Shown: one piece after another, positions 10,944-15,704 of the stretch
Layout of the letters: the number at the start of each line of letters is the position of its first letter
How positions within the stretch are numbered: position 1 is the stretch's first letter
NCBI RefSeq assembly: GCF_012371325.1
Contig: NZ_JAAZQX010000014.1
Location: forward strand, 1 to 64,000
Origin: Acinetobacter sp. A2
Lineage (GTDB): Bacteria > Pseudomonadota > Gammaproteobacteria > Pseudomonadales > Moraxellaceae
Length of the DNA stretch: 64,000 nt
Direction: 5' to 3'
Position numbers and translations under genes: made by a program
The notes under the pieces: generated by a model
What the model was told of the DNA's origin: nothing
The model's input: the letters and a program-made list of their open reading frames with translations, nothing else
Database searches by the model: none

Positions 10944-13280
10944 ATGACTGACTTAGTTCAGCAGTTAGCAAAAGAACTTGCCGTACGACCAAATCAAGTA
11001 GAAGCTGCCATCAAACTGATTGATGAAGGTGCTAGCGTTCCATTTATTGCACGTTACCGTAAAGAAGTAACGCAAGGTTTAGATGATACGCAGCTACGTC
11101 AGCTCGATACACGTTTATCGTATTTACGTGATTTATATGAGCGTCGCGAAAAAGTAATAGAATCACTCAAAGAACAAAATAAATTGTCTGATGATTTATT
11201 GGCACGTGTAAATGCTGCTGAAACCAAGAATGCGCTAGAAGAAATTTACGCGCCTTACCGTCCAAAACGCACCAGTAAATCGTTTAAAGCTAAAGAAGCA
11301 GGTTTAGGCCCAATTGCCGCGCAAATTTTTGCAGAAGCACTTGAGCCAAGTGCAGCATTGGTAGGCTTTAGTCATGCAGACTACCCAGATTTAGACAGTC
11401 AGCTTGATGCTGTACAGCATATTCTGATTGATGAATGGGCACAAAATATTGCCTTGACCACCGAATTAAAAGCCATTTTTGCCAAAACAGCACTGCTAAA
11501 AAGTTTAGTAGCGTCTGAAGATAAAAAAGAAGTGGGCAAAAAATTCCGTGATTACTTCGACTTTTCTGAAAACTTGAACAAAGTCCCTTCACATCGTTTA
11601 TTGGCGATGCTGCGTGGTCGTCAGGAAAACGTCCTAGGCTTAAAAGTCGATGGTGAAGACAGCGCACCATTGGCACGTATTGAAACTGAATACAATTTAG
11701 ATCAAATTCAGCCGCAAGCACGTCAAGACTTTTTAAAGCAAACTGCAAAACTGTTCTGGTTGGGTAAAGTTCGCCCGCAAATTGAACATTCGTTATTGAC
11801 TGAAAAACGTCTTGCTGCCGAAGCAGAAGCAATGGATGTATTTGCAGAAAACTTACGCCATTTGCTGTTGTCTGCACCTGCAGGTGCACGATGTACGCTA
11901 GGCGTTGACCCTGGTATCCGTACAGGTGTGAAACTGGCAGTCGTGAATCAATCTGGCGATGTGGTTGCACATAGTACGGTTTATCCATTTGCACCAAAAG
12001 AAGATAAAGCGGGTGCGATTGAAGAACTTGCGCGTTTATGTCGTGAACACAATATCGATTTAATTGCGATTGGTAACGGTACAGCGAGTCGTGAAACTGA
12101 AGCTGTTGTGGCTGAAATGATGGCTGCGCACAGCGATTTGAAGCTGACGCGCGTGTCTGTGTCTGAAGCGGGTGCATCGGTGTATTCAGCTTCTGAATTG
12201 GCTTCACAAGAATTGCCAGAGCTAGATGTGTCGATTCGTGGTGCAGTGTCTATTGCACGCCGTTTACAAGACCCATTGGCTGAGTTGGTTAAAATTGATC
12301 CGAAATCGATTGGTGTGGGTCAGTATCAACACGACGTGAATCAGGCAGGTTTGGCAAAAACACTGGAAGCCGTGGTTGAAGACTGTGTGAACTCGGTGGG
12401 TGTAGATGTGAATACAGCATCTTCAGCTATTCTGGGCTATATCGCGGGTTTGAATAAATCAATTGCACAGCAAATTGTAGATTACCGTAAAGAGCATGGT
12501 CGTTTTGATAACCGCCAAGCTTTGAAAAATGTACCACGCTTAGGCGAACGTACCTTTGAACAAGCAGCAGGTTTCTTGCGTATTCAAGCCGGTTCTGAGC
12601 CTTTAGATGCCTCTGCTGTTCACCCAGAATCTTATGGTTTGGTGGAAAAAATCGTTGCAGCGAAAGCAACCACAGTCAAAGACATCATTGGCAATACTGA
12701 AATTATTCGTTCAGTGAATGCGGAAGAATTTGTAGATGAGCAAGTCGGTTTACCAACGATTCAGGATGTTTTGTCTGAATTGGAAAAACCAGGTCGTGAC
12801 CCTCGTCCTGAATTCCGTACTGCAAAATTCCGTGAAGATGTGACTGAAGTGGCACAGCTGACTGAAGGCATGCAGCTTGAGGGCGTGGTGACCAATGTAA
12901 CCAACTTCGGTGCTTTTGTGGATGTGGGTGTGCATCAGGATGGTTTGGTTCACATTTCTGAATTGGCCAATGAATTTGTGGCCGATCCGCATAAAGTGGT
13001 GAAACCAGGTCAAATTGTTCAAGTGCGTGTGTTACAGGTTGATGTAGAGCGTAACCGTGTAAACTTGTCAATGCGTCCAGAAGGTTCGGCTGCACCTGTT
13101 AAAGCGGCACGTCCAGCACGTCGTGATCAAGAGCAACGTACAGAGCGTAAGCCACAGGCGAAGCGTCTACAGCAGTCGCGACCTCAGGCTAAAAAGCCAC
13201 AAACTGCTAAACCACAAGAGAATAAAATTGGTGGTTTAGGTGCCTTGTTGTTACAAGCAGGGATTAAAGGTTCGAAGTAA
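10944..13280 (+). CDS. tex: Tex family transcription accessory / S1 RNA-binding protein
   Basis: 778-aa cytoplasmic nucleic-acid-binding protein of the Tex/Spt6-like family. N-terminal helical Tex domain (VPFIARYRKE, ETKNALEEIYAPYRPKRTS), a YqgF/RNase H-like domain beginning TLGVDPGIRTG, a helix-hairpin-helix region (residues about 490-560), and an S1 domain (about 650-720, GVVTNVTNFGAFVDVG). The tail is a Lys/Arg/Gln/Pro-rich extension. AGGA precedes the ATG. Monocistronic with its own terminator. Confidence 0.96.
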   Translation: MTDLVQQLAKELAVRPNQVEAAIKLIDEGASVPFIARYRKEVTQGLDDTQLRQLDTRLSYLRDLYERREKVIESLKEQNKLSDDLLARVNAAETKNALEEIYAPYRPKRTSKSFKAKEAGLGPIAAQIFAEALEPSAALVGFSHADYPDLDSQLDAVQHILIDEWAQNIALTTELKAIFAKTALLKSLVASEDKKEVGKKFRDYFDFSENLNKVPSHRLLAMLRGRQENVLGLKVDGEDSAPLARIETEYNLDQIQPQARQDFLKQTAKLFWLGKVRPQIEHSLLTEKRLAAEAEAMDVFAENLRHLLLSAPAGARCTLGVDPGIRTGVKLAVVNQSGDVVAHSTVYPFAPKEDKAGAIEELARLCREHNIDLIAIGNGTASRETEAVVAEMMAAHSDLKLTRVSVSEAGASVYSASELASQELPELDVSIRGAVSIARRLQDPLAELVKIDPKSIGVGQYQHDVNQAGLAKTLEAVVEDCVNSVGVDVNTASSAILGYIAGLNKSIAQQIVDYRKEHGRFDNRQALKNVPRLGERTFEQAAGFLRIQAGSEPLDASAVHPESYGLVEKIVAAKATTVKDIIGNTEIIRSVNAEEFVDEQVGLPTIQDVLSELEKPGRDPRPEFRTAKFREDVTEVAQLTEGMQLEGVVTNVTNFGAFVDVGVHQDGLVHISELANEFVADPHKVVKPGQIVQVRVLQVDVERNRVNLSMRPEGSAAPVKAARPARRDQEQRTERKPQAKRLQQSRPQAKKPQTAKPQENKIGGLGALLLQAGIKGSK

Positions 13281-13290
13281 TCTTTAATTA

Positions 13291-13334
13291 CAAAAACAAA
13301 AAGCTCCCGAATTGAGGGAGTTTTTTGTTTTTGT
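13291..13334 (+). terminator. Terminator of tex
   Basis: Long stem: CTCCC paired with GGGAG, extended by A-rich and T-rich arms, immediately after the tex stop. Confidence 0.85.
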
Positions 13335-13370: not shown

Positions 13371-15344
13371 ATGTTAAGAAGTTATTATCAAAGTGAGTTT
13401 GCAAGGTTCATAGAAACAACGGATGAATTTATTCTTGGAAGCTTGACGGCAGCGCATGAGTTTGCATTAGATGAATTGCAGAAAAATGCATGGTTAAAAC
13501 AAATTCAAATATTGAAACAGCATTTAGCCGTTTTTAATCATGGGCAGATTTTTTTTGAATTTAGTATCCCGCGTATGGGCAAGCGGGTAGATAATATTCT
13601 TATTATTCGTGATTTAATTTTTGTAGTTGAATTTAAAGTAGGAGATCGGCAATTCACCTCGCAAGCAAAAACGCAGGTGATTGATTACTGTCTAGATTTA
13701 TTAAACTTTCATGCGGGGAGTCATCATCAAAAAGTAATTCCAGTTTTGATTGCAACACAAGCCAACTCAGTTGGGCAGGATTGGCGAGCGATTCGAGAGT
13801 TAAATGATGCTTTATGTTGTAATGCGGAGCAACTAGCTAATTATTTACTACAAGCAATACAGCAATTTTCTGAATCTGACCATTTTGATGTCTCGACGTG
13901 GATTAACTCAACCTATAAACCCACACCCACAATTATTGAAGCTGCGCAGGCACTTTATCAAGGGCATCGTGTTGAAGATATTTCGCGAAGTGATGCAGGT
14001 GCAATTAATTTAGAAATCACATCAAAGCGAATTGAGCAGATTATCGAACTCACTAAGCTGAATAAACATAAAGCCATTTGCTTTCTAACGGGTGTGCCTG
14101 GAGCAGGAAAAACCTTGGCAGGTTTAAATATTGCCAATCAGCGCTTAAAAGTAGATGAGTCTGAGCACTCTGTATTTTTATCAGGAAATGGCCCACTTGT
14201 GGATGTGCTACGAGAGGCCTTGATACGTGATACTGTGAATAGTGCTAAGCAAAATAACCAATTGATCAAGCGTACAGATGCTGAGCGTCATGCTAAAACA
14301 TTTATTCAAAATATTCATCACTTTCGTGATCATTATTTAAAATCATCAGAAGCGCCGATTGAGAAAGTCGTTGTTTTTGATGAGGCTCAACGTGCTTGGC
14401 AAAAAGAGCAAGTTTCTAATTTTATGAAACAAAAAAAGGGCATTGAAAATTTTTCGATGTCAGAGCCAGAATTTTTGATCAGTGTCATGGATCGGCATTC
14501 AGATTGGTGTGTGATCGTATGTTTAATTGGTGGTGGACAAGAGATTAATACTGGAGAGGCGGGTGTTTCTGAGTGGATTTCCACTTTGCAGTATAGTTTT
14601 AAAGATTGGACCGTCTATTATTCAGATCAAATTTTACAGCAGAAAGTTTATCTTGAGTCAAATGAACAGATTGCTTGGTTGAAAGCTTTTGGACAGCATG
14701 AGCCAAACCTACATTTAGCTGTTTCTGTCCGTTCATTTAGAAGTGAACGTGTGTCTAATTTAGTTCAGGCGATATTAGATAATCAGCCGGACATCGCAAA
14801 GCAAATTTATCAGGAGATTAAACAGGATTATCCAATTGTTATATGTCGTAATTTAAAACGAGCAAAAGATTGGCTAAAAGAAAAAGCGAAAGGTTCAGAG
14901 CGTTACGGCATTGTGGCAAGTTCGGGCGGGCGTCGTTTAAAGGCAGAGGGCTTGGATGTTAAAAACAAAATGGTGCCATCGGATTGGTTTTTAAATAACA
15001 ATTTTGATGTGCGTTCCTCTTATTATTTAGAAGACGTTGCAACTGAATTTGATATACAGGGCTTGGAAATTGACTATACCTGTGTGGCTTGGGATATTAA
15101 CTTTTATTTTGATCAACAATGGTTTTACCAGAATTTTAGGGGCAGTAGGTGGCAGCAAATTCATAATGAAGCCAATAGGAAATACTTATTGAATGCCTAT
15201 CGCGTTTTATTAACGCGTGCCCGTCAAGGTATGGTGATTTTTGTGCCATGTGTTAGCGAAGATGATTGGACACGGCCTGCACGACAATATGATTCGACCT
15301 ATGAATTTTTACTGAGCTGTGGATTCGATGTGTTAAAAAACTAA
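13371..15344 (+). CDS. Nuclease-helicase fusion: PD-(D/E)XK-like N-terminus plus Schlafen group 3 / DUF2075 helicase
   Basis: 657 aa. The N-terminal ~200 residues show a PD-(D/E)XK pattern: Asp74 after GKRV, then Glu87-x-Lys89 in VVEFKVG. The C-terminal two thirds is a superfamily 1-like helicase of the DUF2075 family (Schlafen group 3 helicase): Walker A GVPGAGKT (241-248), Walker B VVVFDEAQ (333-340), EFDIQGLE and the arginine-finger motif RVLLTRAR near the C-terminus. It stands alone between tex and small membrane protein genes, with its own terminator and a weak ribosome binding site. Bacterial Schlafen-like and nuclease-helicase proteins often act in phage defence; that role here is inference. 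A house-keeping DNA repair role is the alternative. Confidence 0.85.
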   Translation: MLRSYYQSEFARFIETTDEFILGSLTAAHEFALDELQKNAWLKQIQILKQHLAVFNHGQIFFEFSIPRMGKRVDNILIIRDLIFVVEFKVGDRQFTSQAKTQVIDYCLDLLNFHAGSHHQKVIPVLIATQANSVGQDWRAIRELNDALCCNAEQLANYLLQAIQQFSESDHFDVSTWINSTYKPTPTIIEAAQALYQGHRVEDISRSDAGAINLEITSKRIEQIIELTKLNKHKAICFLTGVPGAGKTLAGLNIANQRLKVDESEHSVFLSGNGPLVDVLREALIRDTVNSAKQNNQLIKRTDAERHAKTFIQNIHHFRDHYLKSSEAPIEKVVVFDEAQRAWQKEQVSNFMKQKKGIENFSMSEPEFLISVMDRHSDWCVIVCLIGGGQEINTGEAGVSEWISTLQYSFKDWTVYYSDQILQQKVYLESNEQIAWLKAFGQHEPNLHLAVSVRSFRSERVSNLVQAILDNQPDIAKQIYQEIKQDYPIVICRNLKRAKDWLKEKAKGSERYGIVASSGGRRLKAEGLDVKNKMVPSDWFLNNNFDVRSSYYLEDVATEFDIQGLEIDYTCVAWDINFYFDQQWFYQNFRGSRWQQIHNEANRKYLLNAYRVLLTRARQGMVIFVPCVSEDDWTRPARQYDSTYEFLLSCGFDVLKN

Positions 15345-15360
15345 AATACAGCGTTTATAC

Positions 15361-15396
15361 GTATCTTAGCCCTTTTGAGATAAAGGGCTATTTTAT
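15361..15396. terminator. Bidirectional terminator
   Basis: TAGCCCTTT / AAAGGGCTA perfect 9-bp stem (15367-15375 with 15382-15390), T-rich on the plus side, between converging genes. Confidence 0.8.
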
Positions 15397-15704
15397 ATCA
15401 ACGGCACAATCCAACTCACTAAAATCAGCATAATACCCAAATGTCCAAGTTTACGTGTGACGGCCACTAATTTAGAGGGCGGTGCTTCAAGTTGGCGGGC
15501 ATATTCCTGAAGATTTAAACCTTGCGAGGCTTTACTGCTAAATAAAAACACGCCCAAATCAATACAAATTAAAATCGTGCCGATATCTGCAACAATCTCC
15601 AGTAATTCATATTCTTGCTGATAAAGCACCATTGCAACCTGATAACTCAGAAACAAGGCAAAGGCAAAACAGCCATATTGTAAAATGAGGGCTAGGGCTC
15701 GCAT
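15393..15704 (-). CDS. Small inner-membrane protein (103 aa), unknown function
   Basis: Three hydrophobic segments (approx. 5-27, 37-56, 84-102) with a hydrophilic stretch between the second and third. No recognised domain. Its layout matches the 96-aa protein encoded upstream, suggesting diverged paralogues. Start ATG at 15704 with GAATGA upstream. Confidence 0.65.
   Translation of the reverse strand: MRALALILQYGCFAFALFLSYQVAMVLYQQEYELLEIVADIGTILICIDLGVFLFSSKASQGLNLQEYARQLEAPPSKLVAVTRKLGHLGIMLILVSWIVPLI

What the first reader, a model, noticed from the sequence alone, without database searches (positions are those of the whole stretch)
13371..15344. Lone nuclease-helicase of the Schlafen group 3 / DUF2075 type: candidate defence gene
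The sequence shows a PD-(D/E)XK pattern (Asp74, Glu87, Lys89) fused to a helicase with Walker A (241-248), Walker B (333-340) and motif VI (RVLLTRAR). DUF2075 is now grouped with Schlafen helicases, and nuclease-helicase fusions recur in phage defence. It is monocistronic among core genes, so it would be a single-gene system. The defence role is inference.
Basis: partly seen in the sequence, partly recalled or inferred. Interest (0 to 1): 0.66.

Follow-up and report, generated by a model that had tools for sequence, protein, structure and literature searches.

The report
Roaming nuclease-helicase, probable phage defence gene
A single Acinetobacter gene encodes a predicted DNA-cutting domain joined to a Schlafen-type helicase; it comes and goes at one spot beside the tex gene, and some of its relatives are wired to restriction-enzyme style control switches or to Nudix domains, so it is most likely an untested anti-phage gene rather than a housekeeping gene.

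Summary
Confirmed: window 13371-15344 (+) is an intact 657-aa ORF, a PD-(D/E)XK nuclease (E63, D74, E87, K89, Q102xxxY106) joined to a Schlafen-group-3 helicase. It matches PADLOC's unvalidated single-gene candidate PDC-S41 over its full length (957 bits).

A homologue is found in 16 of 175 Acinetobacter genomes, tex in 175 of 175; two close relatives (tex 97% identical) show the empty site; 5 of 15 close Acinetobacter copies are broken; the copies lie in two to four lineages among Bacteroidota genes. The N-terminal model is a nuclease fold.

New at family level: 19 of 80 loci have a restriction-modification controller-like (C-protein) HTH gene directly upstream, mostly with a C-box-like element about 48 nt before it and no methyltransferase motif nearby. 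A NUDIX domain is adjacent or fused in 14 loci. The window copy has neither, and neighbours in general were not richer in defence families than distant genes.

Most likely: an acquired helicase-nuclease that degrades invading DNA (inferred; no phage or enzyme test). A new member of a known candidate kind; the C-protein and NUDIX wiring is the surprising part.

The parts
10944..13280 (+). tex, the core gene upstream; anchor of the insertion site (not part of the system)
   Evidence: present in 175 of 175 Acinetobacter genomes
13304..13320 (.). stem of the tex terminator; the accessory gene begins behind it
13371..15344 (+). PDC-S41-type nuclease-helicase, 657 aa, intact
13371..13880 (+). N-terminal PD-(D/E)XK nuclease domain (about residues 1-170)
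   Evidence: AlphaFold2 model pLDDT 91.6; fold matches
13557..13688 (+). catalytic stretch: E63, D74, E87, K89, Q102, Y106 (QxxxY)
   Evidence: invariant in 44 of 44 rows; E63, D74, E87 and K89 kept in two relatives of about 30% identity
14070..15248 (+). Schlafen-group-3 SF1 helicase domain, residues 234-626
   Evidence: PF09848, E 1.4e-80; place
14091..14114 (+). Walker A, GVPGAGKT (241-248)
14367..14390 (+). Walker B, VVVFDEAQ (333-340)
15201..15227 (+). helicase motif VI, RVLLTRARQ (611-619)
15367..15390 (+). terminator-like stem-loop after the gene (consensus match only)
15393..15704 (-). convergent small membrane-protein gene ('mem1', name mine); far side of the insertion site (not part of the system)
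   Evidence: in L107 and L108 it follows tex directly, about 95 bp away

Best explanation
The gene is a horizontally acquired, self-contained helicase-nuclease of the PDC-S41 candidate family. Shown by sequence: a PD-(D/E)XK nuclease domain (with a QxxxY motif as in RecB/Cas4) fused to a Schlafen-group-3 SF1 helicase; a patchy, frequently broken gene placed behind the tex terminator; some relatives behind R-M-type C-protein-like genes, joined to NUDIX domains, or next to defence genes. Inferred: the helicase loads on and moves along invading or abnormally replicating DNA, and the tethered nuclease cuts it, blocking phage or plasmid establishment. Self-damage is limited by controlled expression (C-protein loop in some Bacteroidota; a solo copy behind a terminator here), not by DNA methylation. 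The NUDIX partner, where present, probably gates or supports the enzyme through a nucleotide.
For: PDC-S41 full length, E 8.4e-289. Nuclease motifs and fold. Patchy: 16 of 175 Acinetobacter; 10 of 199 in a family sample, 8 of the 10 being Acinetobacter; 17 of 291 and 7 of 296 in the orders of two Bacteroidota genomes, at E 1e-100. Empty site in G167 and G168, tex 97% identical. The tex-downstream site is variable and holds RmrT/RmrA (RosmerTA, name recalled) in one genome and a 'cll'-like gene plus a RES-domain gene in another. Acinetobacter copies nested among Bacteroidota genes. dN/dS 0.117 against 0.026 for tex. Five of 15 close Acinetobacter copies broken. HTH directly upstream in 19 of 80 loci; 11 of 150 nearest neighbours match PADLOC Control_protein; C-box-like elements. 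HsdR (L027, L028), PDC-S14 (L074), PDC-S70 (L075) directly before S41.
Against: No phage, toxicity or enzyme data exist here. Most of the 80 loci show a solo gene. The window copy has no C-protein, NUDIX or defence neighbour. As a control, the 150 nearest neighbours matched no more PADLOC families than 150 genes five or six places away (108 against 133 families), so a general defence-island enrichment is not shown; of 10 neighbours that I picked as promising, only 3 matched PADLOC. PADLOC PDC families are themselves inferred by context, so that match is not independent proof. DNA rather than RNA as substrate rests on fold and motif only; Foldseek's first whole-model matches are human Schlafens, which cut RNA with a domain that this protein lacks.
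Confidence: 0.65

Rival explanations
1. Abortive-infection effector acting on RNA: like animal Schlafens, the protein would sense infection and cut tRNA or other RNA, killing the cell.
For: The helicase belongs to the Schlafen-group-3 family, and human SLFN14/11 are the first whole-model Foldseek matches. A passage in PMC12839542 says that several prokaryotic Schlafen-linked systems can act by tRNA cleavage.
Against: No Schlafen core RNase domain was found by Pfam. The nuclease domain resembles Can2/Card1/Cdn1, McrBC, EndoMS and Holliday-junction resolvase structures, mostly DNA-cutting enzymes (recalled).
Confidence: 0.16
2. DNA repair or replication helicase-nuclease (Dna2/AddAB-like) with no immune role.
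For: Same two activities as RecB/Dna2-type enzymes; a QxxxY motif; purifying selection; neighbours not generally defence-like.
Against: No homologue found in 159 of 175 Acinetobacter genomes; nested in another phylum's tree and often broken, unlike repair genes; C-protein-like genes upstream in some relatives.
Confidence: 0.1
3. Selfish element: a restriction-like addiction gene kept by post-segregational harm, not by phage protection.
For: C-protein loops belong to R-M systems, which are often on mobile elements (PMC4824078 passages and PMC3850674 abstract; abstract start of PMC3695507); found on two Persicobacter plasmid records.
Against: No methyltransferase motif beside it and no known antitoxin; its absence or breakage at the tex site in relatives argues against addiction.
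Confidence: 0.09

Closest known systems
PDC-S41 (PADLOC-DB phage defence candidate, single gene)
   Same: Full-length profile match, residues 1-655 of 657, 957 bits: this is a member.
   Different: The candidate is listed as one gene (its name, by my reading). Here relatives often carry an upstream C-protein-like gene with C-box-like elements and/or a NUDIX domain. No paper in the library names PDC-S41.
Human group III Schlafens (SLFN11, SLFN14)
   Same: The Schlafen-group-3 helicase; in six of the seven SLFN rows of VIA-align the model from residue 1-19 to 625-644 pairs with chain residues about 392-912, linker plus helicase; first in Foldseek.
   Different: No Schlafen core RNase; instead an apparently intact PD-(D/E)XK nuclease at the place of the linker domain. 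The whole-model superposition is loose (TM 0.24-0.31, rmsd 9.6-15 A), and other helicases (DSH9, HelD) rank above the SLFN rows in VIA-align.
Nhi, Hna and other single-protein helicase-nuclease defences
   Same: A nuclease and a helicase in one polypeptide (general knowledge; start of an Hna abstract seen).
   Different: Only a weak PADLOC Nhi match (E 0.057, helicase part) and no Hna entry among the four PADLOC matches; a different helicase family.
C-protein-controlled type II restriction-modification
   Same: In 19 of 80 relatives a C-like HTH gene directly upstream of the nuclease gene, with GACT/AGTC-type elements (PMC4824078 and PMC4321490 passages).
   Different: No methyltransferase motif beside it, and the regulated protein is a helicase-nuclease. 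The window copy has no C gene.
AbiO (lactococcal abortive infection)
   Same: Weak alignment spanning nuclease and helicase, residues 42-354 (E 0.0017, 15 bits).
   Different: Too weak to claim kinship.

Membership tests
PDC-S41 | Full-length match to the PADLOC profile | tested here: met
   E 8.4e-289, residues 1-655 to profile 1-653 of 657
PDC-S41 | Demonstrated anti-phage activity | not testable with these tools
   No experiment; a 'PDC-S41' paper search returned 0
Schlafen group 3 helicase (PF09848) | Profile match over cut-off, with Walker A, Walker B and motif VI | tested here: met
   271.7 bits against cut-off 24; motifs near-invariant
Schlafen proper | Schlafen core RNase domain | tested here: not met
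   No such Pfam match among the 14 families at E 1
PD-(D/E)XK nuclease superfamily | Catalytic D...E-x-K in the core fold | tested here: met
   D74, E87, K89; model pLDDT 91.6; such nucleases lead the fold lists
PD-(D/E)XK nuclease superfamily | Nuclease activity | not testable with these tools
   Needs purified protein
Cas4/RecB-type nucleases | QxxxY motif after E-x-K | tested here: met
   Q102 and Y106 invariant in 44 of 44 rows; lost in one of two distant relatives (L101); the motif definition is recalled
Cas4/RecB-type nucleases | Significant profile match | tested here: not met
   PADLOC Cas4_II only E 0.023; no nuclease family among the Pfam matches at E 1 for residues 1-200
Type II restriction-modification | Cognate methyltransferase beside the nuclease | tested here: not met
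   No [DNS]PP[YFW]-bearing protein over 180 aa within two genes of S41 in the 19 HTH loci (motif only, 5-methylcytosine enzymes not covered); none recognised by eye among the window gene's neighbours
C-protein-controlled operon | C-like gene with C-boxes upstream | tested here: not met
   Not met for the window copy (no HTH hit, best C-box score 12 of 26); an HTH was found in 19 of 80 relatives
Nhi | Profile match over most of the protein | tested here: not met
   E 0.057, residues 230-360 only

The most novel reading that the evidence does not exclude
PDC-S41 is a methyltransferase-free, restriction-like system: a nuclease-helicase timed on entry into a new host by a genuine C-protein/C-box switch and gated by a NUDIX domain that binds or hydrolyses a nucleotide. 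The solo Acinetobacter gene would be a stripped form. As a corollary, the linker-helicase half of animal group III Schlafens would descend from such proteins, its linker being a decayed PD-(D/E)XK nuclease.
Probability: 0.25. Interest if true: 0.8.

Novelty: new member of a known kind. Interest (0 to 1): 0.55.

Why it matters
Bacterial Schlafen-type proteins are being linked to immunity, but this branch is only a label in a defence catalogue. The work here gives it a testable active site, a natural empty site, natural broken copies, and a regulatory clue: C proteins are known for holding back self-damaging restriction enzymes, yet in many relatives one sits in front of a helicase-nuclease with no methyltransferase motif nearby. 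How such an enzyme spares its own chromosome becomes a direct experimental question. A possible structural tie between the nuclease domain and the unexplained linker of human Schlafens would also matter if confirmed.

Tried and rejected
Housekeeping gene: disfavoured by patchiness against universal tex. Chance ORF: rejected by invariant residues and dN/dS 0.117 (one of the two copies compared is broken, its stop codon was skipped; L010 against L011 gives 0.094). General defence-island enrichment around the family: not shown. At E 1e-8 the 150 nearest neighbours matched 108 PADLOC families, 150 genes five or six places away 133 (only the first 25 families of each are listed, and several models name the same system). 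What is specific is the recurrence of the HTH and NUDIX.

Dedicated defence hotspot at tex: only partly borne out. I looked at 105 of 175 genomes (110 loci, 5 genomes twice), taken roughly in order of tex similarity: 8 hold S41, 38 are empty (mem1 within 200 bp of tex), the rest hold other genes or lack mem1, commonly with a gene of about 730 aa that I take by eye for a SulP transporter (recalled). Of 21 inserted proteins listed, 10 were scanned and three matched PADLOC: RmrT, RmrA and 'cll'. L121 and L125 had only 121-152 bp downstream; L125 is counted as empty, L121 among the rest.

Sequence kinship with solved structures: phmmer and the profile gave potassium-channel chains over the P-loop region, which I regard as spurious, and an uncharacterised protein, 2r2a; the N-terminal profile gave nothing. 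NCBIfam gave no model over its cut-off. C-terminal extensions of 144-245 aa in L027, L028, L056, L066, L074 and L251: of the four scanned only L056 had a match over cut-off, a GreA/GreB C-terminal domain. The canonical C-box score against shuffles was at or below 0.05 in 13 of 19 upstream regions, not all. Thirteen of the 19 score only 14-17, within the range of the 463 control genes; in L038 and L081 the best-scoring place was elsewhere, although the clade's palindrome is at the usual place. Recurrence among related species is not independent; I lean on the spread over tree clades and on the fusions. The SLFN14 linker match is middling (Z 6.4) and not among the 50 Foldseek rows shown. The tree used the quick method with SH-aLRT only; the two forks that separate three of the Acinetobacter groups have support 92, below the starred level, and L012, L013 and L098 lie in MAG contigs that could be misbinned.
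Full report
OBSERVATION. The ORF at 13371-15344 (+) is real: 657 codons from ATG. Residues 234-626 match Pfam SLFN-g3_helicase at E 1.4e-80. In its own genome it is by far the strongest match of that family (273.5 bits, next 27.6). In 44 rows (the window and 43 homologues from Pseudomonadota, Bacteroidota, Campylobacterota, Bacillota and others, 55-69% identity) E63, R68, D74, E87, K89, Q102 and Y106 never vary, nor do the residues of Walker A apart from V242, or the DEAQRAW box. Two relatives of about 30% identity, L101 and L136, keep E63, D74 and the E-F-K triplet; Q102 is kept in L136 only. The spacing D74-x12-E87-x-K89, then Q102-x3-Y106, is what I recall of the RecB/Cas4 branch of PD-(D/E)XK nucleases; the profile match to Cas4 is insignificant (E 0.023), so I call it PD-(D/E)XK and no narrower.

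STRUCTURE. A model from the 44-row alignment has mean pLDDT 84.3; residues 1-200 alone reach 91.6. For the N-terminal domain the VIA-align rows include Cdn1 and Can2 (Z 7.5-8.8), a McrBC chain 8.0, the CRISPR nuclease 6sce 8.0, EndoMS 7.4, Card1 6.9, NucC 6.4, a Holliday-junction resolvase 6.2, SSO0001 6.1, SduA 5.5, LmuA 5.4 and DdmD 5.2. The tool warns that Z under 8 can be a common arrangement; what persuades me is that most rows belong to one superfamily and that the catalytic residues are invariant. For the whole model Foldseek ranks human SLFN14 and SLFN11 first (TM 0.24-0.31). In VIA-align the helicases DSH9 (Z 13.6) and HelD (13.5) come first; six of the seven SLFN rows (Z 11.3-12.8, rmsd 9.6-15.3) pair model residues from 1-19 up to 625-644 with chain residues about 392-912, and the seventh pairs the helicase only. 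That is linker plus helicase by the domain limits in PMC9482658 and PMC12499436 (passages). The N-terminal model alone matches SLFN14 401-554 at Z 6.4, rmsd 3.9 over 123 residues. So the nuclease sits where animal Schlafens have a linker, which PMC8789055 calls 'of unknown function' (passage). The passages that I saw did not call that linker a nuclease fold; I did not read these papers whole.

DISTRIBUTION. 16 of 175 Acinetobacter genomes have a homologue; tex is in 175 of 175. Comparing places, eight of the 16 copies lie directly behind tex (G000, G117, G079, G028, G042, G170, G103, G107). Five are on another contig or far away (G021, G172, G166, G158, G037). The contig of G129 (as L013) shows other neighbours; G148 was not resolved; G151 is a distant homologue (34%) on another contig. 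A family sample had 10 of 199, eight of them Acinetobacter, and the orders of two Bacteroidota genomes 17 of 291 and 7 of 296 at E 1e-100. Four plasmid records (two at 56%, two at 28-31%) and one unverified phage-labelled scaffold carry a relative, as do 9 viral contigs, five of them only 28% identical.

INSERTION SITE. G168 and G167, whose tex is 97% identical to the window's, have tex followed at about 95 bp by the small membrane-protein gene, with no S41. G117, whose tex is closest (98%), has a broken S41 there. The window has the tex terminator, the gene, a terminator-like stem, then the same membrane gene. In L007, L009 and L014, and less exactly L008, terminator-like copies of the CCTCCC...GGGAGG type flank the gene on both sides, which suggests exchange by recombination at terminators (inference). 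Over 105 of the 175 genomes examined at this site, 8 hold S41 and 38 are empty. Other occupants include RmrT and RmrA (E 3.5e-11 and 1.1e-130, L144; RosmerTA, recalled), and in L190 a 'cll' match (E 2e-22) near a RES-domain gene.

DECAY AND EVOLUTION. Of 15 close Acinetobacter copies (59% identity or more, the window's included), five are broken: G117 (stop at codon 44), G042 (codon 37), G107 (a stop about codon 295 and a split frame), G103 (two stops) and G037 (split frame). The window's copy is intact. Against the nearest copy dN/dS is 0.117 (stop codon skipped), against 0.026 for tex between the same two genomes: under constraint, but looser than a core gene. In a tree of 86 rows the Acinetobacter copies lie in four groups: the tex clade (5 rows, support 100), a clade of 6 rows (100) whose L010 and L011 are flanked by SDR and AtuA genes, L013/L098 in a 4-row clade with two Bacteroidota rows (100), and L099 with Neisseria and another Moraxellaceae genus (98). 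L099 is separate by starred branches; the forks that set the first three apart, with Bacteroidota rows between, have support 92. So I count two to four lineages. Support is SH-aLRT only, from the quick method.

CONTEXT OF RELATIVES. Of 323 relatives found in genome contigs the best 80 were kept. (i) An HMM of the HTH finds it directly before S41, on the same strand, in 19 of the 80 loci; with its stop the HTH gene ends between 8 nt inside and 15 nt before the S41 start. Only two further hits exist in the 80 loci, one 868 nt upstream in L024 and one 4.4 kb away in L063. A few loci have little upstream sequence (L022, L023, L059), so 19 is a lower bound. The 19 fall in several tree clades: Flavobacteriaceae 7, Cyclobacteriaceae 5, Flavobacterium 3, Chitinophagales 2, L018, and a Sulfurovum. 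Of the 150 nearest neighbours scanned, 11 match PADLOC Control_protein (best E 2.5e-23); among 150 distant genes no family but mad2 (3) has more than one member. Against this, the total of PADLOC families matched is not higher near S41 (108) than far from it (133). (ii) Upstream of the HTH there is an operator-like element. Seven Flavobacteriaceae loci carry a 13-bp inverted repeat at the same place, found nowhere else in the 80 loci within 3 mismatches, and absent from L053, which lacks the HTH. Others show GACTATAGTC-GGTG-type elements. The best match to the canonical two-operator C-box starts 47-49 nt before the HTH start in 17 of 19 loci. Six score 18-22 of 26, while none of 463 other genes exceeds 17 and none of 61 S41 genes without HTH exceeds 16; the other 13 score 14-17, within the control range, so for them the fixed place is the argument. 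In one search, 12 of 24 further loci have the HTH (in L241 50 nt before S41), and all 12 have the element at -47 to -49; by comparing sequences, five of these (L233, L241, L244, L245, L250) are new and the rest repeat loci already held. The canonical form, GACT-tat-AGTC pairs around a conserved GT, is from PMC4824078 and PMC4321490 (passages). (iii) A NUDIX gene lies next to S41, convergent, in 8 of 80 loci; the eight PDC-S07 matches among nearest neighbours are presumably these. In L032, L079 and L247 a NUDIX domain is fused to the N-terminus in one reading frame. It is also adjacent on the same strand in L101 (distant Acinetobacter homologue), L245 and the phage-labelled L228. That makes 14 loci among the 135 entries examined, which include repeats. 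L079's NUDIX box seems to lack the usual paired glutamates (my reading). (iv) An HsdR-type gene ends 2 nt before S41 in L027 and L028, PDC-S14 7 nt before it in L074, PDC-S70 11 nt before it in L075; seven other neighbours that I picked had no PADLOC match. No methyltransferase motif of the [DNS]PP[YFW] kind was seen within two genes in the 19 HTH loci.

MECHANISM. Most likely the helicase engages invading or aberrant DNA and the tethered nuclease degrades it. Shown: domains, invariant active-site residues, presence and absence at one site, decay, C-protein-like and NUDIX links in relatives. Inferred: DNA as substrate, ATP-driven action, phage as target, and expression control in place of methylation as protection of self. 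C proteins delay restriction enzymes after entry into a new host (PMC3850674 abstract); finding one before this gene suggests that the product is harmful if made too early. The window copy lacks the C gene, as do the other Acinetobacter loci of the 80, so they must be controlled otherwise or be less harmful.

COMPARISON. It is a member of PDC-S41, a candidate family. PMC12988326 (passages) describes PDCs as candidates found by guilt-by-embedding, with validation pending for most of those in its core set; PDC-S41 was not in the passages shown. No paper in the library contains 'PDC-S41'; searches for DUF2075, bacterial Schlafen and related terms showed nothing on this family in their listings. 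A preprint on bacterial Schlafens in anti-phage defence exists (seen only as a citation in PMC12839542; not read), so the C-protein and NUDIX links may have been noticed there.

VERDICT. Observation confirmed, interpretation supported at the level of a strong candidate. The window gene itself is an ordinary member of a catalogued but untested kind; the family-level wiring is the part that a specialist would not expect.

Noticed in passing
L034, L038, L044, L053, L054, L058, L068, L081 (adjacent); L032, L079, L247 (fused): NUDIX domains adjacent to or N-terminally fused with the nuclease-helicase; the adjacent ones presumably are the eight PDC-S07 matches, another PADLOC single-gene candidate, so the two candidates may be one system.
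   Followed up: partly
Upstream of S41 in L018, L021, L026, L034, L037, L038, L044, L046, L047, L054, L055, L058, L063, L068, L071, L078, L081, L083, L084: C-protein-like HTH genes with C-box-like elements, and no methyltransferase motif within two genes.
   Followed up: yes
model m5e2595e3f025 against PDB 9nyy chain B 401-554: The linker domain of human SLFN14 superposes on the PD-(D/E)XK nuclease domain (Z 6.4, middling); the Schlafen linker may be a decayed nuclease.
   Followed up: partly
L027, L028, L056, L066, L074, L251: Extra C-terminal stretch of 144-245 aa; in the five that were printed it ends in a conserved ICSEWYE...NNDR stretch. L056 also has a GreA/GreB C-terminal domain; no other Pfam match over cut-off in the four scanned.
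   Followed up: partly
tex-downstream site in L144, L190, L200, L191, L198: Alternative cargo behind tex in other Acinetobacter: RmrT/RmrA, a 'cll' plus RES-domain cluster, DUF2806 proteins, and a 564-aa protein without a Pfam or PADLOC match.
   Followed up: partly
L101 (G151): A distant Acinetobacter homologue (34%) on another contig has a NUDIX gene directly upstream on the same strand.
   Followed up: partly
L046, L047, L055, L071, L038, L068: A recurrent small protein (about 80-190 aa, with an E-Y-x-x-x-S-R-T/S-I stretch) lies near S41 in several loci; no Pfam or PADLOC match for the L046 copy.
   Followed up: no
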